DNA of 58,426 bases from Geminicoccaceae bacterium (GTDB lineage: Bacteria; Pseudomonadota; Alphaproteobacteria; Geminicoccales; Geminicoccaceae): assembly GCA_025062095.1 (NCBI GenBank), contig JANXAZ010000022.1, positions 1 through 58,426 on the forward strand. Direction: 5' to 3'. Position numbers and translations under genes: made by a program. The notes beneath the pieces are model-generated. The model was not told where the DNA came from and did no database searches. It saw nothing but the letters and a program-made list of their open reading frames with translations. This document shows positions 1-19,627 of the stretch, piece after piece (the stretch's first letter is position 1; each line of letters opens with the position of its first letter).

Positions 1-2
1 TC

Positions 3-719: not shown

Positions 720-1132
720 AAGGCGAGGTCGGCTTTCGTTCGGCTCGAATTCGTCCTGGCTCGTTTTCGCCCCCTTTCGCGCGGGCCCGCGCACCCGAGG
801 TGGCGGCTCCTCGCTCGCGCCGTCGCGACCCGAGGGCTCTCCGCCCGGGGAGCCGCGCTCTCGCGCGGCCGCGCGGCCCGCGCGGGGCGAAGGGTGACGG
901 GAAGGGACGCGCGCGGGATCAAGGCGACGCCGGCCCACGCGAAAGCCGCAGCCCGGCGCGTTCCCGGCCGCACCGTCCCCGGAAGTCCGAAGACGAAGGC
1001 CGGTTTCGTTGCGGGCGCGAGCGCGCCGGGCCGTTGCGCCGCCCCGTGCTCGGGCCCGCCGACCGTCGCCCCTCGACCGCCGCGAGGCGCCTCGGTAAGA
1101 GCGTGGCAGAAAGGGGATCGGGGAGACGATCG
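720..1132. other. 413-base gap without a supported gene
   Basis: This stretch is extremely GC-rich and every frame is open only for lack of AT-rich stop codons. The translations are arginine/proline-rich and look like nothing known. It holds one good hairpin (835-854). The TAXI receptor's ribosome site, a GGGGAGA-like run, is at its right end. I see no recognisable promoter. Confidence 0.5.
835..854. terminator. Possible hairpin terminator after the reductase gene
   Basis: GGCTCTCC (835-842) and GGGGAGCC (847-854) pair with one G-T wobble around a four-base loop, about 115 bases after the reductase stop. No T-tract follows, so intrinsic termination is only a possibility. Confidence 0.3.
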
Positions 1133-2083
1133 ATGCTCGCGCGCCGTCGTATCTTCGTCGGGTTGGCGTTGGCCTCGCTGGCGTTCGCTCTGCCGGCGCG
1201 GGCCCAGCAGTTCGTGAACGTGCTCACCGGCGGCACCGCCGGCGTGTATTATCCTCTGGGCGTCGCCCTTTCCAAAATCTACGGCGACAAGATCCCGAAC
1301 ATCCGTGCTTCCGTGCAGTCGACCAAGGCTTCGGTCGAAAATCTCAACCTGTTGCAAGCGGGCAAAGGCGAGATCGCGTTCACCCTCGGCGATTCCCTGA
1401 TCGCGGCCTGGAAGGGTGACGCGGAGGCGGGTTTCAAGGCTCCGCTCGACAAACTCCGCGGGATCGCCGCCATCTATCCCAACTACGTCCAGATCGTGGC
1501 GAGCAGGGAATCCGGGATCCGCACGCTGCAGGATCTCAAGGGCAAGCGCCTTTCGGTGGGCGCTCCGCGCTCGGGTACCGAGCTCAACGCGCGCGCGGTC
1601 CTCGCCGCGGCGGGTCTCTCTTATGCGGATCTCGGCAAGGTCGAATATCTGCCGTTCGCCGAATCCGTCGAGCTCATGAAGAACCGGCAGCTCGACGCCA
1701 GCTTGCAGTCCGCGGGCCTGGGCGTGGCCTCGATCCGCGACCTCGCGACGGCGATCCCGATCCAGATGGTGCCCATCCCGCCGGAAATCGTCGCCAAGAT
1801 CGGCGATCCGTTCCGACCCGGCGTGATCCCGGCGGGAACCTACACCGGGCAAGACGGGGACGTGCCGACCGCGACGATCCCCAACTATCTCGTCACCCAC
1901 AGCGGCGTTTCCGACGAGCTGGCCTATGCGATGACCAAAGAGCTCTTCGCCAATCTCGACCAGCTCGCCGCGGCGCACGCGGAAGGGCGCAAGATCCGGC
2001 TCGAGACGGCGCTCGAAGGCATGCCGGTGCCGCTTCATCCCGGTGCCGAGCGCTTCTATCGCGAAAAGGGCCTGATTCGCTGA
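1133..2083 (+). CDS. TAXI-family TRAP transporter solute receptor
   Basis: This is a periplasmic substrate-binding protein of 316 residues that delivers its ligand to the TRAP permease encoded next. The start ATG at 1133 gives a clean signal peptide: basic MLARRRIF, a hydrophobic stretch, then cleavage after ARAQQ near residue 24. The mature protein begins with the TAXI hallmark TGGTAGVYYPLG (about residues 30-41). TAXI receptors typically bind small carboxylates such as glutamate or 2-oxoglutarate, but the ligand cannot be read from the sequence. The gene is 19 bases upstream of the permease, so the two form one unit with the DUF1850 gene. Length is normal for the family. Confidence 0.9.
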   Translation: MLARRRIFVGLALASLAFALPARAQQFVNVLTGGTAGVYYPLGVALSKIYGDKIPNIRASVQSTKASVENLNLLQAGKGEIAFTLGDSLIAAWKGDAEAGFKAPLDKLRGIAAIYPNYVQIVASRESGIRTLQDLKGKRLSVGAPRSGTELNARAVLAAAGLSYADLGKVEYLPFAESVELMKNRQLDASLQSAGLGVASIRDLATAIPIQMVPIPPEIVAKIGDPFRPGVIPAGTYTGQDGDVPTATIPNYLVTHSGVSDELAYAMTKELFANLDQLAAAHAEGRKIRLETALEGMPVPLHPGAERFYREKGLIR

Positions 2084-2102
2084 CGGTTCCGGAGAGGAGC
2101 CC

Positions 2103-4187
2103 GTGCGCGCGGGCGAGGAGCGGGCCCCGAGCGCGGAAGAAACGACCTGGGGCCCGGGGATCCGCGGTCGGCTCGTCTACGCGATCGCCGTCGCCTTTTC
2201 CGCGTTTCAGATCTGGACCGCGACCTACGGGCTCCTTCCGAGCCAGATCGTGCGTTCCGTCCACGTCGGATTTCTCCTGCTCTTGACCTTCGCGCTCCTC
2301 GCCAACCGAAGCTCGCGGAACGGAGCGGGGGTGCTTTCGGGCTGGGTGTTGGGCCTTTCGGGGTTCGTCCTCGGTCTGTATCATTGGGTGTTTTATCGCG
2401 AACTGATCCTCCGCGCCGGCGAACCCGAACTCCAGGATATCGTCGTCGGCGTCGTCGTCGTCGCTCTCGTCTTCGAGGCCGCGCGGCGGCTCATGGGCCC
2501 GGCCTTGCCGATCATCTGTGCTCTCTTTTTGGCTTACGCGCTCTTCGGGCACTTGTTGCCCGCACCACTCGGCCATCGCGGCTACGATCTCGGCCAAGTC
2601 GTCGATCAGATGTTCCTGGGCACCGAAGGCATCTACGGTGTGCCCACCTACGTCTCCTCGACTTATATCTTTTTGTTCATTTTGTTCGGCGCGTTCCTCG
2701 AGCGAGCCGGGATGATCCGGCTCTTCAACGACGTGGCACTCGGCACGGTCGGCCACACCCGCGGCGGGCCGGCCAAGGTCGCGGTCGTCTCCTCGGCGCT
2801 CATGGGCACGATCAACGGCAGCGGTGTCGCCAACGTCGTCACCACCGGACAGTTCACCATCCCGCTCATGAAGCGCTTCGGCTATCCCGCCCGTTTCGCG
2901 GGCGCGGTCGAGGCCACGGCCTCCATGGGCGGCCAGATCATGCCGCCCGTCATGGGTGCCGTGGCTTTCATCATGGCCGAAACGCTCGGGGTACCGTACG
3001 TCGAGATCTGTATCGCCGCGGCGATCCCCGCGCTTTTGTATTTCCTCACCGCTTTCCTCACCGTCCATTTCGAAGCCGGCAAGCGCCGCCTCGTCGGTCT
3101 GCCGCGCACCGAATGTCCGAGCGCCCTCGCGGCGTTGCGCCGCGACTGGTACCTCTTGTTGCCGCTCGTCGCCCTCGTGTGGCTCTTGTTCAGCGGCTAC
3201 ACACCGCTTTTCGCCGGCTCGATCGGTCTGGGTCTCACCGCCCTCGTGGTGCTCGGACGGCCCCTGGCCGCGGTTCTGCCGTTCACCGCCTCGCGGGTCG
3301 TCTTCTGGGTCGTCCTCGGCCTGGCGGCGGCGAGTTTCCTCCGCTTGGGGCCGAATGCGCTTTTGGCCACGATCGGCCTTCTCGTGCTCGGCTGCCTTTT
3401 CGTTCGCGGCGGGCGGGAGACGCTGCGTCTGGCGCGCGACAGCCTCGCCGATGGCGCCCGGAACGCCCTGCCCGTGGGTATCGCCTGCGCGCTCGTGGGC
3501 ACGATCATCGGCACGCTCACGCTCACCGGTGCCGCGACGACCTTCGCCGGCGCGGTCGTGGACATCGGAAAAGAGAGCTTGTTCTTCAGCCTCTTTCTCA
3601 CGATGCTCACCTGCCTCGTGCTCGGCACCGGCATTCCCACCATTCCCAACTACATCATCACCTCCGCGATCGCCGGTCCGGCCCTGCTCGAGCTCGGCGT
3701 GCCGCTCATCGTCTCGCACATGTTCGTGTTCTACTTCGGGATCATGGCCGATCTCACCCCGCCCGTGGCGCTCGCCGCTCTCGCCGCCTCGCCGATCGCG
3801 GGCGCCTCGCATCTCGCCATCGGCGTCACCGCGACCCGCATCGCGATCGCGGGCTATGTCGTCCCCTTCATGGCCGTCTATTCGCCCTCCCTTCTCCTCC
3901 AGCCGGGCGATCCGATGGCGGAGGTTCTCGGCTTCTGGCCGGCCGTGCTCTACGTCGTGGCCAAAGCGGTGCTCGGCGTCACGCTCTGGGCCGCGGCCAC
4001 GACCGGCTTTCTCAAGGTCCCGCTGTCGTGGCCCGAGCGGATCTGGTGCCTGGGCGCCGCGGGGCTGCTCGTCGTCGCCTTGCCGGTGACGGACGAACTC
4101 GGTCTCGGCGCTGCCGCGGCCTTCTTCCTCTTCCACCTCGGATGGCGGGCGCGCGCCGTGCGCGCGGCTGCGGCTGCCGTGCGATGA
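2103..4187 (+). CDS. TRAP transporter permease, fused small and large subunits
   Basis: This 694-residue integral membrane protein combines the DctQ-like and DctM-like parts of a TRAP transporter in one chain, as is usual with TAXI receptors. It drives ion-coupled uptake of the ligand brought by the preceding receptor. The start is GTG at 2103 behind GGAGAGGAG. Many hydrophobic segments are visible from residue 20 on. The two halves of the DctM-like domain carry the glycine-rich loops INGSGVANVVTTGQF (about residue 238) and GTGIPTIPNYIIT (about residue 508). The 3' end overlaps the next gene by ATGA, implying translational coupling. The first roughly 20 residues are hydrophilic and cytoplasmic. 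Confidence 0.92.
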   Translation: MRAGEERAPSAEETTWGPGIRGRLVYAIAVAFSAFQIWTATYGLLPSQIVRSVHVGFLLLLTFALLANRSSRNGAGVLSGWVLGLSGFVLGLYHWVFYRELILRAGEPELQDIVVGVVVVALVFEAARRLMGPALPIICALFLAYALFGHLLPAPLGHRGYDLGQVVDQMFLGTEGIYGVPTYVSSTYIFLFILFGAFLERAGMIRLFNDVALGTVGHTRGGPAKVAVVSSALMGTINGSGVANVVTTGQFTIPLMKRFGYPARFAGAVEATASMGGQIMPPVMGAVAFIMAETLGVPYVEICIAAAIPALLYFLTAFLTVHFEAGKRRLVGLPRTECPSALAALRRDWYLLLPLVALVWLLFSGYTPLFAGSIGLGLTALVVLGRPLAAVLPFTASRVVFWVVLGLAAASFLRLGPNALLATIGLLVLGCLFVRGGRETLRLARDSLADGARNALPVGIACALVGTIIGTLTLTGAATTFAGAVVDIGKESLFFSLFLTMLTCLVLGTGIPTIPNYIITSAIAGPALLELGVPLIVSHMFVFYFGIMADLTPPVALAALAASPIAGASHLAIGVTATRIAIAGYVVPFMAVYSPSLLLQPGDPMAEVLGFWPAVLYVVAKAVLGVTLWAAATTGFLKVPLSWPERIWCLGAAGLLVVALPVTDELGLGAAAAFFLFHLGWRARAVRAAAAAVR

Positions 4188-4594
4188 TCTGCGTGCACGC
4201 GGGCGCTCTCATGTTCGCACTCGAAATCCAGGCCTTCACGCTGTCCTGGGTCCATTCGGTCGAAAAGACGCGATGGGAAGAAGACTGGCGGGCCGAAGGC
4301 GACGCGCTCGTGCTCGTCGAAAGCCGCGTTCAGACGAGCGGCGCGGGTATGGAGCCGGGACCGGAAGCGCGTCTCGAGCAGGGCTCCTGGCGTTTCCGAC
4401 CGTCTCTGCCGCCGCAGCGCGAACTCGTTCTCGCGCGTTCTCCTTTCGCGGAAGAGTGGAGGCTTTGTGCCGAGCCGCGAGGTTGCTTTTCGGTCGAGGA
4501 GCTCCTGCCCGGAGCCGAAGCGTTCGCCCCGTTGGTGTTCCGTCCTTGTACCAGCGCTCAGGGGACGGGTTCGAACCAGAGCGGGCAGTTGTAG
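4184..4594 (+). CDS. DUF1850 protein of the TAXI-TRAP operon
   Basis: This protein of 136 residues starts at the ATGA overlap with the permease stop. Genes for DUF1850 proteins are commonly found directly downstream of TAXI-type fused permeases, and the family's opening pattern FTLSWVHSVEKTRWEEDW is visible at about residues 16-33. It has a hydrophobic N-terminus that could anchor or export it, and two cysteines near the middle and end. Its biochemical role is unknown; an accessory part in transport is inferred only from position. The last 37 bases overlap the 3' end of the convergent SET-domain gene on the other strand. Confidence 0.8.
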   Translation: MICVHAGALMFALEIQAFTLSWVHSVEKTRWEEDWRAEGDALVLVESRVQTSGAGMEPGPEARLEQGSWRFRPSLPPQRELVLARSPFAEEWRLCAEPRGCFSVEELLPGAEAFAPLVFRPCTSAQGTGSNQSGQL

Positions 4595-4935
4595 TCGATC
4601 GTGAGCTCCTCCCCGGCCGCGATGTCGCGCCGTGCGCGCGGGATCACCATCCAGCCGACGCGCGCATCGCGCTGCCAGTCGAGTTCCAGACTGGGAGGGA
4701 CGGCGTGGTTCACGAAGGTGAGCCAGCCGAGCACGATCACGCCCTGCCCGTCCCGCTCGGGATGGGCGAAATAATGGTGACGAAATCGAGTGGCCTCGAT
4801 CCGCGGCACGTCCTCGGGGTCGAGCTCGAAGACGGGCTGAGGCTCGAAGCACTCGCCGCGAGCGATGGGGTCGAGAGCGAACACGCCGAGCCCCTTCGCT
4901 CCCGCCGGTCGGATCTCGATCCGCCCGATCCTCAC
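4558..4935 (-). CDS. Short SET-domain protein, possible lysine methyltransferase
   Basis: This 125-residue protein is essentially a bare SET domain, the fold of S-adenosylmethionine-dependent lysine methyltransferases. Visible motifs are GAKGLGVFAL near the N-terminus, TFVNHAVPP in the position of the canonical NHxxxPN motif, and AGEELTIDYN near the C-terminus with the conserved tyrosine. The pre-SET and post-SET cysteines of eukaryotic enzymes are absent, as in other bacterial short forms. The GTG at 4935 was chosen because it overlaps the stop of the acetyltransferase gene (GTGA) and the protein homology starts there. It is the last gene of the KamA/ATP-grasp operon. The substrate is unknown; it may be a protein or the operon's own lysine-derived product. 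Confidence 0.8.
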   Translation of the reverse strand: MRIGRIEIRPAGAKGLGVFALDPIARGECFEPQPVFELDPEDVPRIEATRFRHHYFAHPERDGQGVIVLGWLTFVNHAVPPSLELDWQRDARVGWMVIPRARRDIAAGEELTIDYNCPLWFEPVP

Positions 4936-5471
4936 CGCGCTTGCTCCCGAGACGACAGCTCTTTGACGAAGAACGCTTTGCCGTCGCCCGGAGCGTAGAA
5001 ATCCGCGAGCACCGCTTCGCAGCGGTAGCCGCAGGCGGAATAGAAAGCGCGGGTGGGGGCGTAGCGTTCGCTCGTCGAGGTCTCGACGTAGATCCGGCTC
5101 CCCCCCATGGCCGCGATCCGTGCTTCGGCCGCGGCGAGCAGGGCACGTCCCAGCCCTCGGCGCTGACGATGCGGGCACACCGCGATCCAATAGAGATCGA
5201 AGCTCGAGAGCGTGCCGGCGATGGGACCGAAGCAGACGAAGCCGACGAGATCCTTCTCGTCTTCGGCGAGGAGGAAATGGTAACCCGAGGCTTCGGCGCC
5301 GCGCTCGAGGCTCTCCTCGACGAGTTCGCGGGCGATCGCGACCTCGCTCGGCCTGAAAAAACCGGTCGCCGCCACGAGCCGTTCGACCGCGCCCGCATCG
5401 TCCGGGTGCAGACGCGCGCGAAAGCGCGAGACATCGTGCTCGCGATCGCTCTCCGCCCGGGCCGTGCTCAT
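4932..5471 (-). CDS. GNAT-family N-acetyltransferase
   Basis: The product is a 179-residue acetyl-CoA-dependent transferase. The acetyl-CoA pyrophosphate loop reads RQRRGLGRALL at about residues 109-119, preceded by the strand segment YWIAVCP. The following RAFYSACGYR is the usual C-terminal GNAT strand-helix region. The start ATG at 5471 overlaps the stop of the upstream ATP-grasp gene (ATGA), and the stop overlaps the SET gene start (GTGA). Position suggests it acetylates an amine made by the operon, for example beta-lysine or a peptide containing it. This is inference. It is shorter than the AblB beta-lysine acetyltransferases and not obviously the same subfamily. Confidence 0.85.
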   Translation of the reverse strand: MSTARAESDREHDVSRFRARLHPDDAGAVERLVAATGFFRPSEVAIARELVEESLERGAEASGYHFLLAEDEKDLVGFVCFGPIAGTLSSFDLYWIAVCPHRQRRGLGRALLAAAEARIAAMGGSRIYVETSTSERYAPTRAFYSACGYRCEAVLADFYAPGDGKAFFVKELSSREQAR

Positions 5472-6469
5472 CGAGCGACGCCGCGCGTCGTTCTCGCGGC
5501 GGGTGCCGTCCGCAACGCCGCGCTCAGGATCCGCTCGATCGCGCAGCGCTGGTCGAGCCCCGCCTCCTCGAGCGCCGCCACGAAGCCGGCATCCGCCGAA
5601 AGACAAGGATTGGCGTTGACCTCGAGGATCCACGGCCGTCCCTCGCGATCGAGGCGGATGTCGATGCGCGCGTATCCGCGCAACGCGAAGAGATCCCAGG
5701 CTTCGAGCGCGAGCCGCGCCAAGCGCGCGCGCAGATCTCCGTCCGCCGGGCGGGGGGCGAAGATCCGAGGCGTGGTTTCCCAGGTGATCGAGCCGGGTCG
5801 CCATTTGGCGTCGTAGTCGACGATCGCCGGACGGTCGCGCGGATATTCGCTGAAGTCGATCTCGCCGATGGGCATCACTTCCACGCCGTCCGGGCCTTCG
5901 AGGAGGGGAACGTTGAACTCGCGCCCCTCGACGAAGGCTTCGGCGAACCACCGCCCGCCCCATGCGGCGCGCATCGCCGCCATCCGCTTCTTCACCGCGT
6001 CGCCCGGCACCACCGCTTCGGCATCGAGGCCCAAGGAAGCGTCCTCGTCCACCGCCTTGACGATCCACAGGCGGTCGGGATCGGCGCGTTCGGGGTCCTC
6101 GCACCAGTCCGGGGTGGGCAGACCCGCACGCCGCATCAGCCTTTTGGCGGCGAGTTTGTCGGTGGTGAGGGCGAGCGCCGCCGCCGGCGCGCCGGTGAAG
6201 GGTATGCCCAGGACTTCGAGCACCCCCGCCGGCAGGTGCTGCAGACCCGCTCGACCCTCGAGCGCTTCGACGAGATAGAAGACGAGCGCCGGGGGGTCGC
6301 GGGCGAGGGCGCGCAGCGCGCTCAGATCCAGGCCGATGCCGAGGATTTCGGTGCGCAGGCCGAGTCCCGCGAGGACGGCCGCGACCTCGTGCACCTGAAC
6401 GAGCGTGTCGAGCTCGTCCGGGCGATCGCCGGGGTCGAGGGCGCCGTGCAAGACGACGATCCGGTCCAT
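5468..6469 (-). CDS. ATP-grasp ligase, D-Ala-D-Ala ligase-like (second in operon)
   Basis: This 333-residue protein has the ATP-grasp fold of the D-alanine-D-alanine ligase superfamily, which joins a carboxylate and an amine through an acyl-phosphate. Signs are the pre-ATP segment TTDKLAAKRLMRRAGLPTP, the strand WIVKAVDEDASLG, and the magnesium-binding end RPWILEVNANPCLS with its E-x-N. The N-terminal domain differs from true Ddl and lacks the serine/glutamate signature of the D-Ala site. A second, different ATP-grasp gene precedes it with a TGATG overlap. It is therefore unlikely to be the housekeeping Ddl. A role in ligating lysine-derived or other amino acids is inferred from the cluster. 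Confidence 0.85.
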   Translation of the reverse strand: MDRIVVLHGALDPGDRPDELDTLVQVHEVAAVLAGLGLRTEILGIGLDLSALRALARDPPALVFYLVEALEGRAGLQHLPAGVLEVLGIPFTGAPAAALALTTDKLAAKRLMRRAGLPTPDWCEDPERADPDRLWIVKAVDEDASLGLDAEAVVPGDAVKKRMAAMRAAWGGRWFAEAFVEGREFNVPLLEGPDGVEVMPIGEIDFSEYPRDRPAIVDYDAKWRPGSITWETTPRIFAPRPADGDLRARLARLALEAWDLFALRGYARIDIRLDREGRPWILEVNANPCLSADAGFVAALEEAGLDQRCAIERILSAALRTAPAARTTRGVAR

Positions 6470-7476
6470 CAACGACCCGCCCGTCGCAGGCTCGTACCGA
6501 CCAACCCCGCCCGCTCGGCCGCCGATTCGACGATCGCCCCGATCAGGGCGTCGTAACTCAGGCCCGCTTTGCGCGCGAGGATCGGGAGATCCGAATGGGT
6601 CGGATGGAGACCCGCGAGCGGGTTGACTTCCAGGAACTGGGGTCGTCCGGAAGCGTCGCTCCTGAGATCCACGCGGCCGGCGTCGCGACACTCGAGGGCG
6701 CGGTAACAGGCCAGGGCGAGTTCCGCGGCCGCCCGCGCCTCGTCGTCGTCGACGAGGACGTAGCGCACGAATTCTTCGCAGCGCTCTTTGTTCGCATACG
6801 AATAAACGCCGGGCTCCGCTCCGGGCAGGAGCTCGATCTCGAGCGTGCCGAGCACGCGCGCCCGCGCGCCCGTCCCGAGGATCCCGACGGTGAATTCGCG
6901 ACCGGGCAGAAAGCTCTCGACCAAGACGGGTTGCGCGAAACGCAGAAGAAGGGCCGCGCAGGCGCGCTCGAGTTCGCGGCGGGAGCGCACGAGCGAGGCG
7001 GGGGAGACCCCCTTTCCCGTCCCCTCGGCGACGGGCTTGACGAAGAGCGGGAAGGGCAGATCGACGCGGGCGATGTCGGAAGGATGGGCCACGAGCGCGA
7101 ACGGCGCGGTGGGCAGGCCGTGATCGCGCACCAGACGCTTGGCCACCGCCTTGTCGAGCGTCGCCGCCATGACGAGCGGGTCGGCGAAGGTATAGGGTTG
7201 ACCGAAGGCCTCGAGCAGTGCGGGCACCTGCGCTTCGCGCGAGCGCCCGCTCAGCCCCTCGCAGATGTTGAAGACGAGATCCCAACGGTCCCCGGCGACG
7301 AGCCGCTCGGCCAGGCGACGCACGTTCCCGATCCGGTCGACGCGGTGACCGAGGCGCGACAGCGCCGCCTCGAGCTCGGCGATGGTCTCGGGACTGTCGA
7401 ACTCCGCGAGCTGCTCTTCGGGCAAGCCCAAGGCGCGATAATCGTCGCGCAAATCGTACGCGAGACCGATCAACAC
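6469..7476 (-). CDS. ATP-grasp ligase, D-Ala-D-Ala ligase-like (first in operon)
   Basis: This 335-residue ATP-grasp protein also belongs to the D-Ala-D-Ala ligase superfamily but differs clearly from its neighbour. It carries FNICEGLSGRSREAQVP at about residues 78-94 (the place of the HGxxGEDG region in Ddl), ATLDKAVAKRLVRDHGLPT, LFVKPVAEGTGKGV in the ATP-binding loop, and PQFLEVNPLAGL at the metal site. The preferred start is GTG at 7476 with GGAGG nine bases upstream, which overlaps the aminomutase stop by seven bases; TTG at 7473 is an alternative. Two dissimilar ligases in one operon suggest two successive amide bonds. Substrates are unknown. Confidence 0.85.
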   Translation of the reverse strand: MLIGLAYDLRDDYRALGLPEEQLAEFDSPETIAELEAALSRLGHRVDRIGNVRRLAERLVAGDRWDLVFNICEGLSGRSREAQVPALLEAFGQPYTFADPLVMAATLDKAVAKRLVRDHGLPTAPFALVAHPSDIARVDLPFPLFVKPVAEGTGKGVSPASLVRSRRELERACAALLLRFAQPVLVESFLPGREFTVGILGTGARARVLGTLEIELLPGAEPGVYSYANKERCEEFVRYVLVDDDEARAAAELALACYRALECRDAGRVDLRSDASGRPQFLEVNPLAGLHPTHSDLPILARKAGLSYDALIGAIVESAAERAGLVGTSLRRAGR

Positions 7477-8792
7477 GGCTCGCCTCCGGCACCGATCGGC
7501 CGGCCGAGGCGGCCTCGCGGGTCGTGGTAACGGAAGAGACGACCTTCGAAGTTGCGAAAAACGAGCTCGTCGCCGTCGCGGCCCACGAGATATTCCGGAA
7601 CGAGGGGAACCTTGCCGCCGCCGCCCGGAAGATCGACGACGAAGTGCGGGATAGCATAACCGGTCGTGTGGCCCCGCAAGCCTTCGAGGAGCTCGATCCC
7701 CTTCTCGACCGGCGTGCGGAAATGCGCCGAGCCGCGGATCGGATCGCACTGGAAAAGGTAGTAGGGCCGCACGCGCAACCGCAAAAGTCCGCAAAAGAGA
7801 GTTTTGAGCGTGACGAGGTCGTCGTTGACTCCCTTGAGCAAGACCGTCTGCGAACCCAGAGGCACGCCGGCGTCGGCGAGCCGATTGCAGGCTTCCTCGA
7901 CTTCTCGGGTGAGCTCCTTGGGATGCGTGGCGTGCAGGCTCAACCAAACCGGCCGGTGCCGGCGCAAGACGCGCACGAGGCCGCGGGTGATCCGCTGCGG
8001 CAAGACCATCGGGACTTTGGTGCCGAGGCGCACGAACTCGACGTGCCGGATCCGTTTGAGCCGTCCCAGGAGCCAGTCGAGCCTGTCGTCGCCCAAGGTG
8101 AGGGGATCGCCCCCGGAAACGAGCACGTCGCGGACGGTGGGCGTCGCTTCGATGTAAGCGAGCGCTCGCTCCCATTGACGATAAGAGAAGCGGTGGTCGC
8201 CGCCCACGTCCCCCACCATGCGCGAGCGCGTGCAATAGCGGCAGTAGGTCGAGCAGAAGGCGGTGGCGAGAAACAACACGCGATCGGGGTAGCGGTGAAC
8301 GAGGCCGGGAACGACCATATGGGCGTCCTCGCCGAGCGGATCCTCGGCCTCGCCCGGGCTCGACAGATATTCTGCACCGACCGGAATGTGGGTCCGACGC
8401 AGAGGCTCGGCGGGATCCTCGCGGTCCATGAGCGCGGCGTAATAGGGCGTGATTCCCACCGGGAGCGCGCCCTCGTGCCGCCGGATCGCCGCCCGCTCGT
8501 CCTCGTCGAGGGTGAAAATACGCTCGAGTTGTGCGAGGCTGCGCAAGCGATTGCGGAGCTGCCAGCGCCAGTCGTCCCATTCGGCGCGCTGGACGTCGGG
8601 AAAGAAGCGTCGTTTGAAAGCCCGCACCTGCGGGCTCATGGGGAAATGCTCGCGGCGACGAGCAGATTCTCCCGAAGAGATCGACACGGTCGCGGAGCGG
8701 GCACCGCCGACGCGGACGAACCCGCGATCGACCGGTGCCGGCTCCTCGGTACTGGGAGGGCGAAGGGACTCTGCGGTTTCCAGATCCGACAT
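7470..8792 (-). CDS. kamA: Lysine 2,3-aminomutase family radical SAM enzyme
   Basis: This 440-residue radical S-adenosylmethionine/PLP enzyme is predicted to convert L-lysine to L-beta-lysine. The 4Fe-4S cysteines are C180, C184 and C187 in CSTYCRYC. The PLP lysine is K394 in PGGGGKVP. The aspartates that hold the lysine side-chain amine in characterised aminomutases are retained in FQCDPIRGSAHFRTP and VVDLPGGGGK, so lysine is the likely substrate rather than glutamate. The ATG at 8792 has GAGGGAG upstream; longer in-frame starts would run into the promoter. It is the first gene of a five-gene overlapping operon driven from about position 8835. The usual partner for acetyl-beta-lysine synthesis (AblB) is not adjacent. 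Confidence 0.9.
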   Translation of the reverse strand: MSDLETAESLRPPSTEEPAPVDRGFVRVGGARSATVSISSGESARRREHFPMSPQVRAFKRRFFPDVQRAEWDDWRWQLRNRLRSLAQLERIFTLDEDERAAIRRHEGALPVGITPYYAALMDREDPAEPLRRTHIPVGAEYLSSPGEAEDPLGEDAHMVVPGLVHRYPDRVLFLATAFCSTYCRYCTRSRMVGDVGGDHRFSYRQWERALAYIEATPTVRDVLVSGGDPLTLGDDRLDWLLGRLKRIRHVEFVRLGTKVPMVLPQRITRGLVRVLRRHRPVWLSLHATHPKELTREVEEACNRLADAGVPLGSQTVLLKGVNDDLVTLKTLFCGLLRLRVRPYYLFQCDPIRGSAHFRTPVEKGIELLEGLRGHTTGYAIPHFVVDLPGGGGKVPLVPEYLVGRDGDELVFRNFEGRLFRYHDPRGRLGRPIGAGGEPC

Positions 8793-9158
8793 GCGGCTCC
8801 CTCGGAACTCGGTCGACGCCACCAAGCGCCGATCCGCCGGGGTTATATAGCTACCAAGAGAACTTGCAAGAGACGACCGACGACACCCCGGGCGAATTCT
8901 GGCACGCGGCAATGGATCGCGAAGGAATATTAGGGAAATCGAGCCGTTACCACCAAAAGCGCCCTGCGGATAAAGAAAATCTCACGCTCGGCCACGACGC
9001 GCGATCGGCAAACCAAGCAAAATCTCTTGAATGATCAGCGTTCTTCCGACCACTCGCACCATCGCGCCGGAAGAGCGCCAATATCCGTCGCGCGCCCAGA
9101 AAAAGATCACGCCGTTGCGAGGCCATTGGGCAAAGTCTTGCGCGCTTCCCGCGCACAC
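8793..9158. other. 366-base intergenic region, locally AT-rich
   Basis: The region lies between the amidohydrolase stop and kamA, both on the minus strand. It has visibly lower GC than its surroundings, especially 8840-9050. It holds the kamA promoter. One minus-strand frame immediately after the amidohydrolase stop (TGAGTG) encodes a possible 58-residue peptide (9158-8982) with a hydrophobic centre, VIFFWARDGYW and TLIIQEILLGLP. Other frames are equally open, so I do not call it a gene. Confidence 0.4.
8842..8870 (-). promoter_or_regulatory. Predicted sigma-70 promoter of the kamA operon
   Basis: On the minus strand, CTTGCA (8870-8865) is followed after exactly 17 bases by TATAAC (8847-8842). 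Transcription would start near 8835, giving a leader of about 40 bases before the kamA ATG. It lies in a locally AT-richer stretch. Confidence 0.5.
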
Positions 9159-9992
9159 TCAGCCGAAGCGATAGAGCCGCGCGGGGTTCTCCACCAGAAT
9201 GCGATGCCGCACTCCCTCGTCCGGCGCCCAATCGAGCAAGAGGTCGAGAAGCGCCGCCTCGTCCTGGGGCGCTCTGCCCGGGTGCGGCCAGTTCGTGGCC
9301 CACAGCATGCGCTCCGGGGCCTGGCGGACGAGGGCTCGGGCGAGAGGAGCCACGTCGTCCCATCCGGGGGGCCCGACCCGCGAGCTCTCGTAAGGGGCCG
9401 AGAGCTTGACATAGGCACCGCGATCGACGAGCCGCTGCAACGCGCGAAAGGCCTCGTGCTCGACCGGGACGGGGTCCATGAAGCGACCGATGTGATCGAT
9501 CACGAGCTGCACGTCGAGCCGCTCGAGCAGATCCAGCCGTTCGGCGAGCAGCCATCCGTTGCACTGCAGCTGCAGATGCCAACCCGCTGCCCGCGCCATC
9601 GCGGCGAGCTCCGGTAGTTGCTCCCAGTGGAAGATCCCGCCCGGCAAGAGAAACACTCTCAACCCCACGGCACCGGCGCGCGCGAGCCGCTCGAGCTCGG
9701 CGTCCCCGGTACCCAGAGGAACGACGACCACGGCGCGAGCGCGTGCTCCGAACTCGGCGACCGCGGCGAGCGTGCAACGGTTGTCGCAGCCGTAGCCCGC
9801 GGGTTGGACGACCACGACCCGCTCGAGCCCCAGCCGAGCCTGGACCGCCCGATATTCGGCCACCGACGCCTCGGGCGGAGCGTTGGGGCTCGTAGGCCAA
9901 AGAGGCCAGCGGTCGTAGGGACCGTAGACATGCATATGGGTATCGGCCGCCCCCGGCGGGCAGCGCAAGCGCGGACGCGGCGCCTCGCTCAT
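9159..9992 (-). CDS. Amidohydrolase of the LigI / 2-pyrone-4,6-dicarboxylate lactonase type
   Basis: This 277-residue TIM-barrel hydrolase belongs to the amidohydrolase-2 group, whose members include 2-pyrone-4,6-dicarboxylate lactonase and related lactonases or decarboxylases. The N-terminal metal-type motif is DTHMHVYGP (about residues 17-25). LVIDHIGRFMDP follows at the sixth strand, and LWATNWPHP near the C-terminus carries the conserved aspartate-region equivalent, here with Asn-Trp-Pro-His. The start ATG at 9992 has GAGGACAG upstream. It stands alone: divergent from the diguanylate cyclase and 366 bases from kamA. The exact substrate is not recognisable; aromatic ring-cleavage products are plausible. 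Confidence 0.8.
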   Translation of the reverse strand: MSEAPRPRLRCPPGAADTHMHVYGPYDRWPLWPTSPNAPPEASVAEYRAVQARLGLERVVVVQPAGYGCDNRCTLAAVAEFGARARAVVVVPLGTGDAELERLARAGAVGLRVFLLPGGIFHWEQLPELAAMARAAGWHLQLQCNGWLLAERLDLLERLDVQLVIDHIGRFMDPVPVEHEAFRALQRLVDRGAYVKLSAPYESSRVGPPGWDDVAPLARALVRQAPERMLWATNWPHPGRAPQDEAALLDLLLDWAPDEGVRHRILVENPARLYRFG

Positions 9993-10139
9993 CGGCTGTC
10001 CTCCCCGCGACGAGACTAACGCGGGTCGCTGCGACCGCACAGTTCCCGACGACGACCGGCGCCCGCGTTCGGCGCGCGATGCTGTCGTGAAAGGTCGGCA
10101 ACGATTCCGCCGTCCTCGCGACACGGTTGCGCCGAGAGA

Positions 10140-10169
10140 TTGTGGTCGGTCGCCCGTTCGCGCTATAGT
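10140..10169 (+). promoter_or_regulatory. Predicted promoter of the diguanylate cyclase gene
   Basis: TTGTGG (10140-10145), an 18-base spacer and TATAGT (10164-10169) lie 34 bases before the cyclase ATG. The -10 element is a near-consensus match; the -35 is weak. Confidence 0.45.
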
Positions 10170-10203
10170 GTCAAAAGAAACGACCCTCGGGCGGGAACGG
10201 TCG

Positions 10204-10965
10204 ATGCTCGTCCGGCGCCGACGCGACGTGGTGCTCGGAGCGGTGATCGCGAGCGGGCTGTCCTCGCTCGTCTCGATGGGCCTTTTCGCCGGCGTAGCCC
10301 ATTGGCGCGGGGACGCGATCGATCCTTTCTGGCTGGCCTTCGCGGGGGCGGCGCCGATCGCCATGGCCGGCCCGACGGTCGCCTATCTCTTGGAGCTCTT
10401 GCGTCGGCTCGCGGGGGCCAAGCTCGAGCTCGAGGAGCTCGCGCGGCGCGACTCGATGACCGGGCTTCTCAATCGCGGCGCTTTCTTCGAGGCGGCCGAG
10501 GCGGCGATTCGCAGGGCACGAGGCAACGGCCGGCCGCTCACTCTGCTCGTCCTGGACGTCGACCATTTCAAGGCCGTCAACGACAGCTACGGGCACGCCG
10601 CCGGCGACGAGGCGTTGCGGCTCATCGCTCGCACGCTGCTCGCCGCCACCCGCCGCTCCGACGTCGTGGGGCGGCTCGGAGGCGAAGAGTTCGGGGTGCT
10701 GCTCGAGGGCGCGGCTCCGGACGAAGCGGCCCTGGTCGCGGATCGGATCCTCTCCGCCGTGCGGTTGTTGGACTTCGAGCAGGGCGGCGAGCGCGTGCCG
10801 CTCAGCGCGAGCGCGGGGCTCGCCGCGCTCGAGCCCGGCCTCGACCTGGACGGTCTCTTCGCGCGGGCGGATGCGGCGCTCTACGCTGCGAAGCGCGCCG
10901 GCCGCGGGCGCGCGCGGCACGCCGATCCGTCGAGCGGCCTTTTCGTCGCGCGCCGGCGCGCCTGA
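10204..10965 (+). CDS. Membrane-bound GGDEF diguanylate cyclase
   Basis: This 253-residue protein has two N-terminal transmembrane segments (about residues 9-30 and 40-65), a short linker, and a C-terminal GGDEF domain making cyclic-di-GMP from two GTP. The active-site motif is GGEEF at residues 159-163, an accepted active variant. LVLDVDHFKAVNDSYGHAAGD supplies the metal aspartate and the substrate-binding Asn and Asp. RxxD-type inhibitory residues are not evident in the expected position. The ATG at 10204 was chosen over an upstream in-frame start at 10087 because the latter would cover the predicted promoter. The gene is followed 27 bases later by pyrF. Confidence 0.88.
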   Translation: MLVRRRRDVVLGAVIASGLSSLVSMGLFAGVAHWRGDAIDPFWLAFAGAAPIAMAGPTVAYLLELLRRLAGAKLELEELARRDSMTGLLNRGAFFEAAEAAIRRARGNGRPLTLLVLDVDHFKAVNDSYGHAAGDEALRLIARTLLAATRRSDVVGRLGGEEFGVLLEGAAPDEAALVADRILSAVRLLDFEQGGERVPLSASAGLAALEPGLDLDGLFARADAALYAAKRAGRGRARHADPSSGLFVARRRA

Positions 10966-10992
10966 GCGGGCGCCTCCGAGGAGCCGAAAGCC

Positions 10993-11715
10993 GTGCCGCT
11001 GCCCGCGGGTTTCTCCAACCCCCTTCTCGTGGCGATCGATCGCCCCGATCTCGCGAGCGCGCTCGCCCTCGCCGAACCGCTTCGCGCGATCGCCGGAGGC
11101 TTCAAGCTCGGCCTCGAGCTCTTCGTCGCCGAAGGCCCGCGCGCGGTCGACGCCTTTTCCCGACTCGGCCCGCCGGTCTTTTTGGACCTCAAGCTCCACG
11201 ACATCCCGAACACCGTCGCAGCCGCCGTGCGCAGCGCCGCGCGCCTGGGTCCGGCCCTTTTGACCCTGCACGCCGCGGGAGGACCCGCGATGCTGCGCGC
11301 GGCGGCCGAGGCGGCGCGCGCCGCCGGATGCGGTCTGCGCCTGCTCGCGGTCACCGTGCTCACGAGCCTCGACCGCGACGACCTCGAGGCGATCGGGGTC
11401 CGGGCCGCGCCCCTCGAGCAGGTCGTCCGGCTCGCCCGGCTCGCGGTCGCGTGCGGGATCGACGGCATCGTCTGTTCCCCCTCGGAGGTCGCCGCCGTCC
11501 GGGGGGCGCTCGGCCCCGCGCCGATCCTGGTCGTGCCCGGGATCCGTCCCGAAGGCGTCGCGACGGCGGATCAGAAACGCACCGCCGATCCGCGCGTGGC
11601 GACCGCCGCCGGCGCCGATCTCTTGGTCGTCGGTCGGCCGATCACCGCCGCAGCCGATCCCCTCGCCGCCGCGCGAGCGATTCTGCGCGAGCTCGGGATC
11701 GCCTCCGGGTCTTGA
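10993..11715 (+). CDS. pyrF: Orotidine 5'-phosphate decarboxylase
   Basis: This cytoplasmic enzyme catalyses the last step of UMP synthesis, decarboxylating OMP. The product has 240 residues and the compact bacterial type-1 form. The catalytic Asp-Lys-Asp array is seen in [13 protein letters not shown] (about residues 61-73). The phosphate-binding end is VVPGIRP followed by [10 protein letters not shown]. The start is GTG at 10993. The gene follows the diguanylate cyclase closely and could share its transcript. In many alphaproteobacteria pyrF is next to dnaJ-related or other housekeeping genes; here its neighbours are unrelated. Confidence 0.93.
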
Positions 11716-11912
11716 CCCTCGGCCCGCGCCGCTCGGCCTTCCGGGGTCGGAGCCGGTGCCACCTCCGATCCGGTCGTTCGCGCGTGCTTCTCCCGCGCGC
11801 GCTTCGGCGCGGTCGGCCGGGACCGTTCGGAGCCGCGAACCGCGGGCCCGTTCGCCCTCGGCGCGGCGGGTGGAGGGTGGTCGAGCTCGGTGGGCCGCGC
11901 TAGGCTGCACCC

Positions 11913-14642
11913 ATGACGGAAAGGAAGCCGAGGCTCATTCTCGTCGACGGCTCGGGTTATATTTACCGAGCCTTCTTCGCTCTCCCGCCGCTCACGCGTC
12001 CCGACGGCACCCCCGTCAACGCCGTGTTCGGCTTCACCAATATGCTCTGGAAACTGCTCCAAGAGCATCCCGACGAGCCGATCGTCGTCGTCTTCGACGC
12101 CGGCAAGAGGAGCTTCCGCAACGACATCTACGAAGCCTACAAAGCCAACCGGGAAGAAGCCCCGCGCGAGCTCGTCGCTCAGTTCCCGCTCGTGCGCGAG
12201 GCGGCGCGCGCCTTCGGATTGCCCGTGGTCGAACTCGAGGGCTACGAGGCCGACGACGTCATCGCCAGCTTCGCCCGGGCCGCGCGCGAAAAGGGCGAAG
12301 AGGTTCTCATCGTATCCTCCGACAAGGACCTCATGCAGCTCCTGGGCCCCGGCATCGAGATGTGGGACCCCCTCAAACAGAAGCCGATCGACCGCGCCGC
12401 GGTGATCGAGCGCTACGGGGTCCCGCCGGAACGGCTGCGCGATCTCTTGGCGCTCACCGGGGACAGTTCGGACAACGTTCCCGGCGTACCGGGCATCGGT
12501 CCCAAGACGGCCGCACAACTGCTCGAACGTTTCGGCTCGCTCGAGGCGCTGTTGGGCAACCTCGATCGCATCGAACAACCCAAGCGCCGCGAAGCGCTCG
12601 CGCGGCACGCCGCCGACGCCAGGCTCTCCTATCGGCTCGTGGGGCTCGAAGACAGAGTGCCCTTGCCGTTCTCGGTCGAGGAGACCCGCCGCCGCCCCTT
12701 CGATCCGGAAACTCTCTTGGCCTTTTGTCGGGCGAACGGCTTCCGTTCGCTCGTCGGGCGGATCGAAGAGCTCGCCGAGGCCGCCGAGGCGGAGCGCCGC
12801 AAGGCCCGGGCGCAGGCGAGCGAGCGGCGCCGGATCGCCATCACCTCGCTTCCCGCGCTCGAAGCCGTGCTCGAGCGCGCCCGCGAAGTCGGACGATTGG
12901 CGATCGACACCGAGACGACTTCGCTCGACGTGATGAAAGCCGAACTCGTGGGCTTGGCCTTGGCGGTGGACCCGGAGCGGGCCTTTTACGTACCGCTCGC
13001 GCATCGCGACGCTTTCGGGGCGCGGCTTCCGGGCCAGCTCGAGGCGGAGGCGGTCTTCGCGCGCCTGCGCCCGGTGCTCGAAGATCCCTCGGTCCTCAAG
13101 ATCGGACACAATATCAAATACGATCTCACCGTGCTCGCCCGCGCCGGCTGCCCTCGAGTGGCGCCCTTCGACGACACGATGCTCATCTCTTACGTCCTCG
13201 ACGGCGGCCGCCACGGACACGGTCTCGACGAACTCGCCAAGCGCTGGCTCGATCACGACACGATCCCTTACGAGGCGGTGTGCGGCAAGGGCGCCCAACA
13301 GATCGGCTTCGAACGGGTCTCGATCGAGCGCGCGACCGAATACGCGGCCGAGGACGCGGAAGTGACCCTGCGGCTGTGGCTCGCCATGCGTCCGCGGCTC
13401 TTCGAAGAGCGTCTGCTCACCCTTTACGAGCGGATCGAACGGCCGCTGCCGCCGATCATCGCGGCCATGGAACGAGCCGGTGTCAAGGTCGACGGGGCGC
13501 GGCTGCGCGCGCTCTCGAGCGAGTTCGGCCAAGAGATGCAGGACCTCGAGGCACGAGCCGTGCGCCTCGCCGGGCGCCCCTTCAATCTCGGCTCCCCCAA
13601 GCAGCTCGGGGAAGTGTTGTTCGAAGAACTGGGCCTGGGCGGCCCCGGCCGCAAGACGAAAACCGGGGCTTATGCCACGAGCGCCGAAGTCCTCGAAGAG
13701 CTCGCCGCTCAGGGACACGAGCTCCCCAGAGTGATCCTCGAGTGGCGGCAGCTGCAGAAACTCACGCGCACTTATACGGATGCGCTCTTGGAGCAGATCG
13801 ATCCCAAGACCGGGCGCGTGCATACGGCCTATATGCTCGCTGCCACCAATACGGGTCGGCTCTCGTCTTCGGAGCCGAACCTCCAGAACATTCCGATCCG
13901 CACCCCGGAAGGCCGCCGCATCCGCGAAGCCTTCGTCGCCGAACCCGGTCATCTCTTGGTCTCGGCCGACTATTCCCAGATCGAGCTCAGGATCCTGGCG
14001 CACATCGCCGACATCGAGCCCCTCAAACGGGCCTTCGCGGAGAACCTCGACATCCACGCGCTCACGGCCTCGCAGATGTTCAAAGTGCCGATCGCGCAAG
14101 TCAGCCCCGAGCTCAGGCGGTCGGCCAAGACGATCAACTACGGGATCGTTTACGGGATCGGTGCGTACGGCCTTTCGCAACGCCTCGGCATCCCCCAGGC
14201 CGAGGCCAAGGCGTACATCGACCGCTATTTCGAACAGTATCCGGGCATCCGCGATTACATGGAGCGGGCGAAGACGCAAGCCCGGGAGAAGGGTTACGTG
14301 ACGACCCTGTTCGGCCGCCGATGCTGGATCCCGGACATCAACAGCCGCCTCCCCTCGCGGCGGGGCTACGCCGAACGCCAGGCGATCAACGCCCCCATCC
14401 AAGGCACCGCCGCCGACATCATGAAACGGGCGATGATCCGCGTTTTCCGCGCGCTCGAGCGCACGGGCTCGAAGGCGCGGATGCTCCTTCAGGTCCACGA
14501 CGAGTTGCTGTTCGAGGTCCCAGAAGCCGAAGTGCCGGCCCTCAGCGCCCTGGTCAAACGCGTCATGGAAGGGGCCGCCCAGCTCTCGGTGCCTCTCGTG
14601 GTGGAAACCGGTGTGGGCAAGAACTGGGGCGAGGCGCATTGA
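11913..14642 (+). CDS. polA: DNA polymerase I with proofreading
   Basis: This 909-residue protein carries all three classical activities. The 5'-nuclease domain fills about residues 1-290 (YIYRAFFALPPLTRPDG, YEADDVIAS, GDSSDNVPGVPGIGPKTA). The 3'-5' exonuclease domain (about 310-510) is intact, with DTETTSLD at residue 332, HNIKYDLTVL, and YAAEDAEVTL, so proofreading should be active, unlike in some bacterial PolA proteins. The polymerase domain has DYSQIELRILAHI at about residue 686, RRSAKTINYGIVYGIGAYG, and the catalytic QVHDELLFEVP at about residue 860. The enzyme removes primers and fills gaps in replication and repair. The next gene overlaps its end. Confidence 0.97.
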   Translation: MTERKPRLILVDGSGYIYRAFFALPPLTRPDGTPVNAVFGFTNMLWKLLQEHPDEPIVVVFDAGKRSFRNDIYEAYKANREEAPRELVAQFPLVREAARAFGLPVVELEGYEADDVIASFARAAREKGEEVLIVSSDKDLMQLLGPGIEMWDPLKQKPIDRAAVIERYGVPPERLRDLLALTGDSSDNVPGVPGIGPKTAAQLLERFGSLEALLGNLDRIEQPKRREALARHAADARLSYRLVGLEDRVPLPFSVEETRRRPFDPETLLAFCRANGFRSLVGRIEELAEAAEAERRKARAQASERRRIAITSLPALEAVLERAREVGRLAIDTETTSLDVMKAELVGLALAVDPERAFYVPLAHRDAFGARLPGQLEAEAVFARLRPVLEDPSVLKIGHNIKYDLTVLARAGCPRVAPFDDTMLISYVLDGGRHGHGLDELAKRWLDHDTIPYEAVCGKGAQQIGFERVSIERATEYAAEDAEVTLRLWLAMRPRLFEERLLTLYERIERPLPPIIAAMERAGVKVDGARLRALSSEFGQEMQDLEARAVRLAGRPFNLGSPKQLGEVLFEELGLGGPGRKTKTGAYATSAEVLEELAAQGHELPRVILEWRQLQKLTRTYTDALLEQIDPKTGRVHTAYMLAATNTGRLSSSEPNLQNIPIRTPEGRRIREAFVAEPGHLLVSADYSQIELRILAHIADIEPLKRAFAENLDIHALTASQMFKVPIAQVSPELRRSAKTINYGIVYGIGAYGLSQRLGIPQAEAKAYIDRYFEQYPGIRDYMERAKTQAREKGYVTTLFGRRCWIPDINSRLPSRRGYAERQAINAPIQGTAADIMKRAMIRVFRALERTGSKARMLLQVHDELLFEVPEAEVPALSALVKRVMEGAAQLSVPLVVETGVGKNWGEAH

Positions 14643-16104: not shown

Positions 16105-16201
16105 AGGCTCCGCATCTCCGTCTGCGCTCGCGGTGCGACGATCGTCGGGGGCGAGCGCGAGCACGGGTCGCTCCCGGGGTTCGGACGTGCAGCAGGGATT
16201 G

Positions 16202-17593: not shown

Positions 17594-17599
17594 ACCGAA

Positions 17600-17627
17600 C
17601 CGCGCGTCTCGGCCGAGCGCAGCGCGG
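17600..17627. terminator. Hairpin after the P450 gene
   Basis: CCGCGC (17600-17605) pairs with GCGCGG (17622-17627), and the centre is the perfect palindrome CTCGGCCGAG. It separates the P450 gene from the rpsB promoter. No T-tract is present, so termination is inferred from shape and place only. Confidence 0.35.
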
Positions 17628-17657
17628 CACCGCGGATCGCCCGGGACGGCGGCGGCC

Positions 17658-19606: not shown

Positions 19607-19627
19607 GAGCTTCGGGAGCGCTCGCCC

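What the first reader, a model, noticed from the sequence alone, without database searches (positions are those of the whole stretch)
4558..8870. Five-gene overlapping operon joining a lysine aminomutase, two ATP-grasp ligases, a GNAT and a SET protein
Seen: each gene overlaps the next (7-base overlap, TGATG, ATGA, GTGA), behind one promoter. The aminomutase keeps its iron-sulfur cysteines, PLP lysine and lysine-specific aspartates. Known: KamA makes beta-lysine; ATP-grasp ligases form amides; GNATs acetylate amines; SET domains methylate lysine amines. Inference: the operon could build a small beta-lysine-containing peptide or amide and then acetylate and methylate it, or it could modify a protein with beta-lysine. 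Known acetyl-beta-lysine osmolyte synthesis needs only AblA and AblB, so the two ligases and SET domain are unexplained. This is my main candidate for an undescribed system.
Basis: partly seen in the sequence, partly recalled or inferred. Interest (0 to 1): 0.78.

Follow-up and report, generated by a model that had tools for sequence, protein, structure and literature searches.

The report
Widespread uncharacterised beta-lysine peptide operon
A lysine-rearranging enzyme, two peptide-bond-forming enzymes and an acetylating enzyme are kept together in this order in distantly related bacteria, so they probably make an unknown small molecule containing beta-lysine; here a lysine-methylating enzyme has been added.

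Summary
The five overlapping minus-strand genes are real (4558-8792). The unit is not local. The core is KamA-ligase1-ligase2-GNAT; ligase1-ligase2 and ligase2-GNAT fusions occur. An acetylpolyamine-amidohydrolase-like (HDAC-fold) deacetylase is linked in 26 of 105 loci, SET in only 8: SET is an accessory. Elsewhere its slots hold a cysteine-cluster protein, weakly FliB-like; that swap is only suggestive (P of no overlap 0.30). KamA keeps lysine-type motifs. The ligases have the D-Ala-D-Ala ligase fold but miss every listed Ddl cut-off and lack its omega-loop tyrosine. EF-P modification is not the general role: G017 has the operon but no EpmA; G034 has a separate EpmA-KamA pair. Best reading: a pathway to a soluble acetylated beta-lysyl di- or tripeptide. 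Product and reactions are unproved. Ten literature searches did not show it; one likely earlier survey (Iyer 2009, recalled) could not be read.

The parts
7470..8792 (-). kamA: radical-SAM/PLP lysine 2,3-aminomutase family, 440 aa
   Evidence: LAM_C E 1.8e-21; best NCBIfam AblA 457 bits (below its 525 cut-off), TIGR00238 KamA family over cut-off, profile of 8 rows matches 2a5h L-lysine 2,3-aminomutase E 6.8e-148
6469..7476 (-). AG1: D-Ala-D-Ala-ligase-like ATP-grasp amino-acid ligase 1, GTG start overlapping kamA by 7 bases
   Evidence: Dala_Dala_lig_C E 2.8e-28; AF2 model pLDDT 93.8, Foldseek top 50 all Ddl/Van ligases; homologs in many phyla
5468..6469 (-). AG2: D-Ala-D-Ala-ligase-like ATP-grasp amino-acid ligase 2
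   Evidence: Dala_Dala_lig_C E 1.1e-16; AF2 model pLDDT 95.6, Foldseek top 50 all D-Ala-D-Ala or D-Ala-D-lactate ligases; within 7 kb of AG1 in 67 of 80 named loci
4932..5471 (-). GNAT N-acetyltransferase, 179 aa
   Evidence: Acetyltransf_7 E 7.8e-14; closest solved chain by sequence 2r7h 'putative D-alanine N-acetyltransferase' E 1e-44
4558..4935 (-). minimal SET-domain protein (125 aa from the GTG), accessory
   Evidence: SET E 1.7e-10; only solved chain matched is 5h6z SET domain-containing protein 7, E 1.1e-10; NH and EELTIDY motifs present; the only SET match in this genome
8842..8869 (-). possible promoter TTGCAA-16-TATAAC upstream of kamA
   Evidence: by eye, 9 of 12 consensus bases; the tool's stricter scan reported none

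Best explanation
The operon makes a soluble, amine-acetylated peptide-like metabolite that contains beta-lysine. KamA turns L-lysine into beta-lysine. AG1 and AG2, two diverged Ddl-type ligases, use ATP to form two amide bonds in sequence, joining beta-lysine with one or two other amino acids. The GNAT acetylates a free amine, probably the side-chain amine, masking charge. Where present, the APAH/HDAC-type deacetylase removes acetyl groups (maturation or recycling), and SET, or a FliB-like cysteine-cluster protein elsewhere, methylates an amine. SHOWN: the gene set, its order and conservation, the fusions, the predicted folds and the catalytic motifs. INFERRED: every reaction, the order of steps and the product; a protective or osmolyte-like role is only the most likely guess.
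For: Conserved order across phyla: of 80 best named loci KAM lies within 7 kb of AG1 in 73, AG2 in 67, GNAT in 60 (52, 48 and 48 of the 54 loci not near a contig end). Of 24 alphaproteobacterial loci read from genomes: KAM 23, AG2 24, GNAT 18. Clustering of neighbouring ORFs of 80 aa or more in the named loci gave no further gene common to more than 16 of them, and those clusters were lineage-specific or antisense, so the pathway looks self-contained; ORFs under 80 aa were not clustered, so a short precursor peptide is not excluded. Fusions: AG1-AG2 in L057, AG2-GNAT in L055, L087, L161, L170, GNAT-HDAC-GNAT in L032. Of 8 genomes whose locus shows no AG2 beside AG1, 3 (G414, G416, G419) have an AG2 elsewhere at 44-45% identity. 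KamA motifs: CxxxCxxCxR 98 of 98, QCD 92 of 98, DxPGGGGK 94 of 98, all three 88 of 98 KamA rows. The linked deacetylase domain is nearest to acetylpolyamine amidohydrolases, small-molecule enzymes (6phr E 1.1e-72). Both ligases keep the Ddl fold.
Against: No substrate or product is known; Ddl-type ligases could act on other amino acids and KamA could feed several routes. No GNAT is linked in L033, L169, L176 and L167 (its contig ends soon after), nor in some Planctomycetota loci. In 5 of the 8 genomes without a linked AG2 no clear AG2 was found (G412, G415, G417, G418 weak hits only; G413 a 123-residue partial hit); two of these (L059, L070) have contigs that end just after AG1. An osmolyte role is not supported by any salt-linked context. 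In the window's genus KamA is the only KamA and EpmA is present, so part of its beta-lysine may go to EF-P. A peptidoglycan gene (MraY-like) lies about 560-570 bases upstream of the kamA reading frame in 3 related Planctomycetota loci and about 470 in a fourth.
Confidence: 0.58

Rival explanations
1. The operon modifies a protein: KamA supplies beta-lysine for EF-P (with EpmA), or the ligases attach a beta-lysyl tag to a protein that GNAT and SET then modify.
For: EpmA is present over cut-off in all 6 genus members and each has just one KamA-family hit, the operon's. SET enzymes usually act on protein lysines (recalled).
Against: G017 has the operon but no EpmA match at E 1e-40 or better. G034 has EpmA beside its own second KamA on another contig, G034:C5, plus the operon KamA. 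KamA scores 253.6 against the EpmB cut-off of 369.3. The ligases have the Ddl (small amino acid) fold; the linked deacetylase is nearest to acetylpolyamine enzymes. EpmA also occurs without any KamA match in G010, G011, G021 and G022.
Confidence: 0.13
2. The two Ddl relatives make altered peptidoglycan building blocks (a stem peptide or cross-bridge with beta-lysine).
For: Both ligases are closest to Ddl/Van ligases by sequence and fold. In 4 closely related Planctomycetota loci (L047, L051, L058, L062) a same-strand MraY-like gene (peptidoglycan lipid-carrier step; Pfam tested in L058 only) lies about 470-570 bases upstream of the kamA reading frame.
Against: That neighbour is confined to one clade; no other peptidoglycan gene was recognised by eye among the recurrent neighbours of the 80 named loci, though I did not search for mur or van families. 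The Ddl omega-loop Lys-Tyr is Lys-Trp in AG2 (61 of 61) and Lys-Glu in AG1 (Lys 47 of 47, Glu 41 of 47). A polyamine-type deacetylase and a lysine methylase do not fit easily.
Confidence: 0.12
3. It is only an N-epsilon-acetyl-beta-lysine osmolyte operon (AblA/AblB-like) with neighbours that do something else.
For: KamA and GNAT are the two activities of AblA/AblB, a known osmolyte route (PMC1224877, passages read).
Against: GNAT is not AblB: the own genome has no TIGR03827 hit and the GNAT matches no AblB model at E 1e-3 or better. The ligases are constant partners and are fused to each other or to the GNAT in 5 loci, so they belong to the path.
Confidence: 0.08
4. Lysine breakdown (beta-lysine fermentation) operon.
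For: KamA opens that pathway (recalled).
Against: No cluster of recurrent neighbours in the 80 named loci looked like a later enzyme of that route (by eye; not searched by family); ligases and GNAT have no place in it.
Confidence: 0.03

Closest known systems
AblA/AblB N-epsilon-acetyl-beta-lysine osmolyte pathway
   Same: KamA-family aminomutase plus a GNAT in one operon
   Different: GNAT is not AblB; two ATP-grasp ligases are added as constant partners; KamA is under the AblA equivalog cut-off (457 of 525)
N-acetylglutaminylglutamine amide (NAGGN) dipeptide osmolyte pathway
   Same: would work alike: ATP-grasp peptide bond plus GNAT acetylation giving a charge-masked dipeptide (NAGGN as osmolyte: PMC1224877 passages; its genes recalled)
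   Different: has KamA and two Ddl-type ligases; no NAGGN-family hit among the families listed; no amidotransferase noticed among recurrent neighbours
EpmA/EpmB EF-P beta-lysylation
   Same: KamA-family enzyme making beta-lysine
   Different: below EpmB cut-off; operon present without EpmA in G017 and beside a separate EpmA-KamA pair in G034
D-alanine-D-alanine ligase / Van ligases
   Same: fold and ATP-grasp core
   Different: every listed Ddl/Van cut-off is missed by 88 bits or more; omega-loop Tyr absent; another Ddl-like match exists in the genome at G000:C63
FliB flagellin lysine methylase ([4Fe-4S], PMC8598068, abstract and outline read)
   Same: the cysteine-cluster protein found in other loci in the SET slot shows weak similarity in 2 of 4 tested (E 3.3e-4 and 1e-3)
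   Different: about 190 aa against a 373-position model, far below cut-off (20 and 19 of 85 bits); not in the window

Membership tests
Lysine 2,3-aminomutase (KamA/AblA) | CxxxCxxC radical-SAM motif, PLP lysine, two aspartates that bind the lysine side chain (roles recalled) | tested here: met
   aligned with 2a5h; motifs in 98, 92 and 94 of 98 rows, all three in 88
Lysine 2,3-aminomutase (KamA/AblA) | score over NCBIfam AblA equivalog cut-off | tested here: not met
   457.4 against 525.4 bits; over the broader KamA-family cut-off TIGR00238
AblA/AblB osmolyte operon | GNAT of the AblB family | tested here: not met
   no TIGR03827 match in the whole genome
EpmB (EF-P) | EpmB equivalog score and EpmA partner in the same genomes | tested here: not met
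   253.6 of 369.3 bits; G017 has the operon without EpmA; the genus does have EpmA
D-Ala-D-Ala ligase | NCBIfam Ddl cut-off and omega-loop Lys-Tyr | tested here: not met
   AG1 154 and AG2 105 bits against 243 for the best Ddl model; Tyr replaced by Glu (41 of 47) and Trp (61 of 61)
ATP-grasp amino-acid ligase (general) | ATP-grasp fold with Mg-binding E/N residues | tested here: met
   AF2 and Foldseek; AG1 E282 and N284 47 of 47 (numbering of alignment A4), AG2 N285 61 of 61 and E283 57 of 61
NAGGN synthesis | dedicated GNAT/ATP-grasp protein and amidotransferase | tested here: inconclusive
   not among the families shown for the GNAT or the ligases (AG1 25 of 33 and AG2 25 of 27 listed)
SET lysine methyltransferase | SET domain with NH and ELxxDY motifs | tested here: met
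SET lysine methyltransferase | methylation of a protein lysine | not testable with these tools
   needs enzyme assay
Acetylpolyamine amidohydrolase (linked in other loci) | closest solved relatives are APAH | tested here: met
   6phr, 9gkz, 3men, 3q9b on top for the G017 protein
beta-lysine peptide synthesis | beta-lysine as ligase substrate | not testable with these tools
   no ligand docking or assay available

The most novel reading that the evidence does not exclude
A free metabolite, a beta-lysyl peptide, is acetylated, deacetylated and methylated by the enzyme types known from chromatin (GNAT, HDAC fold, SET), with SET replaced in other lineages by a FliB-like [4Fe-4S] methylase; that would be a SET-domain enzyme acting on a small molecule in a pathway spread over many bacterial phyla.
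Probability: 0.2. Interest if true: 0.82.

Novelty: new variant of a known kind. Interest (0 to 1): 0.62.

Why it matters
If right, a metabolite not yet named is made by about 7% of the sampled genomes of the window's class (26 of 385, own genome included) and perhaps by a large share of the phylum of G421, the genome of a Desulfobacterales locus (103 of 297 with AG1 at E 1e-60, 62 genomes with a match above 360 bits; neighbours not read there). It names cultured hosts in which to look (Rhodovulum marinum DSM 18063, L053; Pseudaestuariivita atlantica, L046; Desulfopila sp. IMCC35006, L090; titles). It may also give a role to 2r7h, a solved GNAT labelled a putative D-alanine N-acetyltransferase (its own gene neighbourhood was not checked), and would show lysine-modifying enzymes at work on a small molecule.

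Tried and rejected
EF-P modification as the general role: rejected on G017 and G034, kept open for the window's genus. Housekeeping Ddl: rejected on cut-offs and omega loop. Mutual exclusion of SET and the cysteine-cluster protein: 0 of 105 loci have both, but with 8 and 14 carriers chance gives 0 with P 0.30, so it is not evidence by itself. Their placement in the same two slots rests on few independent cases (at least 6 changes for SET and 5 for the cysteine protein on a quick AG1 tree with 40 of 103 inner branches under 80 support). Neighbour clustering gave mostly antisense ORFs and lineage-specific genes, a per-locus listing, was cut in part and I read what was shown. On re-reading I found the MraY-like neighbour in four Planctomycetota loci, which I had overlooked; searches confirmed it, and I moved the peptidoglycan rival from 0.10 to 0.12 and the best explanation from 0.60 to 0.58. 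Plasmid search: 70 records, all under 60% identity; those listed (25 of 70) were annotated, where at all, as ATP-grasp proteins or D-Ala-D-Ala ligases (some also over an ftsQ-type gene). RNA families: none near the operon in window 1-20000. From memory, Iyer, Abhiman, Burroughs and Aravind 2009 (Mol Biosyst, amidoligases with ATP-grasp) surveyed such neighbourhoods and may list this one; it is not held, so priority is open. My crude gene caller picked antisense ORFs in GC-rich loci; I relied on profile searches instead.

The 105-locus set (80 named, 24 alphaproteobacterial, window) holds one duplicate pair by identical AG1 (L048 and L164), and L042 and L043 match the genus genomes G002 and G001. 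L076's second ligase scored best with the AG1 profile, so AG2 is undercounted by one there.
Full report
THE OBSERVATION. The five genes are there as described: kamA 7470-8792, AG1 6469-7476, AG2 5468-6469, GNAT 4932-5471, SET 4558-4935, all on the minus strand, with junctions GTGTTGA, TGATG, ATGA and GTGA. Pfam and NCBIfam assign KamA/LAM, Ddl-like ATP-grasp twice and GNAT; SET is assigned by Pfam alone. No sigma-70 consensus was found by the scan; TTGCAA-16-TATAAC at 8842-8869 was seen by eye only.

CONSERVATION. All six genomes of the genus have AG2 at 72-100% identity, with kamA, AG1, GNAT and SET in order in 5 (the sixth contig ends). In one of the five, G002, the SET gene is broken by frameshifts while the other four genes are whole; two others, G004 and G005, carry two SET genes in tandem. 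Same-family and same-class genomes G017, G030 (a contig fragment) and G034 carry variants. With profiles built here, counted within 7 kb of AG1: KAM 73, AG2 67, GNAT 60, HDAC 21, cysteine-cluster protein 11, SET 6 of 80. In 24 alphaproteobacterial loci taken from genomes: KAM 23, AG2 24, GNAT 18, HDAC 5, cysteine protein 3, SET 1. The usual order is KAM-AG1-AG2, then GNAT or GNAT-HDAC, on one strand; exceptions are L179 and L180, where AG2 and GNAT face the other way, and L067, L103 and L105, where the HDAC lies before AG1 and no KAM is seen. In named records the carriers include Alphaproteobacteria, Syntrophaceae and Desulfobulbaceae, Planctomycetota, Bacteroidota, Acidobacteria, Neomarinimicrobiota and Sumerlaeota, and, with only KAM and AG1 side by side, a Spirochaetes and a WOR-3 genome (titles, genes). 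In the class of the window 26 of 385 sampled genomes have AG1 at E 1e-60 or better. In the phylum of G421, the genome of L055 (titled Desulfobacterales), 103 of 297 do, of which 62 genomes have a match above 360 bits; neighbours were not read there.

THE CORE AND ITS ADD-ONS. KamA, AG1, AG2 and mostly GNAT form the core. Fusions tie them together: AG1-AG2 in L057, AG2-GNAT in L055, L087, L161 and L170. The commonest add-on is a GNAT-HDAC protein (in G017 a GNAT-HDAC-GNAT fusion) whose deacetylase domain is nearest to acetylpolyamine amidohydrolases (6phr, E 1.1e-72). It is absent from the window's operon; the nearest relative in that genome is a distant one on another contig (41% identity, 115 bits). 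SET occurs in 8 and the cysteine-cluster protein in 14 of 105 loci, never together, but that absence has P 0.30 under independence. They use the same two places: after GNAT (SET in the window, cysteine protein in L119), and between KAM and AG1 (SET in L107, cysteine protein in Planctomycetota and L075); in L033, L169 and L176 the cysteine gene follows AG2 directly. Two of four cysteine proteins tested, both alphaproteobacterial, match the FliB lysine methylase model weakly; FliB uses a [4Fe-4S] cluster and SAM (PMC8598068, abstract read). So the idea that both methylate a lysine-type amine is a lead and not a result.

WHAT THE ENZYMES LOOK LIKE. KamA: best family AblA (457 bits, under its cut-off), then glutamate and arginine aminomutases, EpmB far lower; lysine-type motifs are kept in most rows (all three in 88 of 98). 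AG1 and AG2: AlphaFold models of pLDDT 93.8 and 95.6, Foldseek top 50 all Ddl-family, including one D-Ala-D-lactate ligase and ancient VanA. In the alignments to Ddl the omega-loop Lys stays, and Tyr becomes Trp in AG2 (61 of 61) and Glu in AG1 (41 of 47); so neither should be called Ddl. GNAT: closest solved chain is 2r7h, a putative D-alanine N-acetyltransferase (E 1e-44). SET: only solved chain matched is 5h6z, SET domain-containing protein 7 (E 1.1e-10).

EF-P. EpmA is present in all six genus members and KamA is single there. But G017 has the operon with no EpmA match at E 1e-40, G034 has EpmA next to a second KamA on another contig, and G010, G011, G021 and G022 have EpmA without any KamA match. 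The operon is therefore not an EF-P system in general, though it may also feed EpmA in the genus.

PEPTIDOGLYCAN. A same-strand MraY-like gene lies about 470-570 bases upstream of the kamA reading frame in four related Planctomycetota loci, L047, L051, L058 and L062 (Pfam for L058). It is the one hint from gene neighbours towards a cell-wall role and is confined to that clade in the loci read.

MECHANISM. Most likely L-lysine is turned to beta-lysine, two amide bonds are made by AG1 and AG2, and an amine is acetylated, giving a charge-masked beta-lysyl peptide; deacetylase and methylases tune it in some lineages. This resembles in logic the NAGGN dipeptide osmolyte and the AblA/AblB osmolyte (PMC1224877, passages read) without being shown to be a member of either. 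All reactions are inferred.

NOVELTY. No title or abstract start listed by ten searches shows the unit (three listings were partial), nor do the passages read in two papers with aminomutase hits (PMC3543383 and PMC12316311). A 2009 survey of ATP-grasp neighbourhoods, recalled, was not available. NCBIfam shows no model of its own for AG1 or AG2 among the matches listed (25 of 33 and 25 of 27). I therefore call it a new variant of a known kind, with real interest from its breadth and from the SET and deacetylase partners.

Noticed in passing
window 1100-4594 (+): TAXI-type TRAP transporter (Pfam): NMT1_3 receptor ending 2083, DctM permease 2103-4187, DUF1850 protein 4184-4594, which runs convergently into the SET gene with a 37-base overlap (4558-4594).
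   Followed up: partly
L034 8705-9495, L035 9646-10436: Two SET genes in tandem after GNAT in two genus members; the second is about 41-43% identical to the window's SET.
   Followed up: partly
L036 9618-9988 (same contig as L042): SET gene broken into three frames in one genus member while the other operon genes are intact, so SET looks dispensable there (or the assembly errs).
   Followed up: partly
G000:C121:95228-96196 (L183): EpmA (GenX) over cut-off with no separate KamA in all six genus genomes; its source of beta-lysine is open.
   Followed up: partly
L057 3401-5440; L055 10952-12508; L087 6630-8204; L161 6564-8030; L170 6620-8116: Gene fusions AG1-AG2 and AG2-GNAT.
   Followed up: yes
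L058 6241-7284, L051 6243-7274, L047 6165-7205, L062 5564-6586: MraY-like gene upstream of kamA in four related Planctomycetota loci.
   Followed up: partly
L169 downstream of the cysteine-cluster gene; L033 10006-11001: A threonine-dehydratase-like gene (by eye) follows the operon directly in L169, and in L033 after an opposite-strand gene; both lack the linked GNAT.
   Followed up: no
L072, L073, L076, L078, L091, L100, L111, L112, L113, L116, L118: In the Smithella-type clade a PhoU-like protein gene lies downstream (all 11), with a phosphate-permease-like gene in 10; six of these loci also have a diaminopimelate-decarboxylase-like gene nearby (names by eye).
   Followed up: no
window 17698-17797 (+): rpsB sRNA family match (RF01815), 43.4 bits, E 1.2e-05.
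   Followed up: no
L052, L062, L064, L075, L081 and L033, L119, L169, L176: The cysteine-cluster proteins come in two cysteine spacings, one in the first set (mostly Planctomycetota) and one in Alphaproteobacteria, so they may have been recruited more than once.
   Followed up: partly
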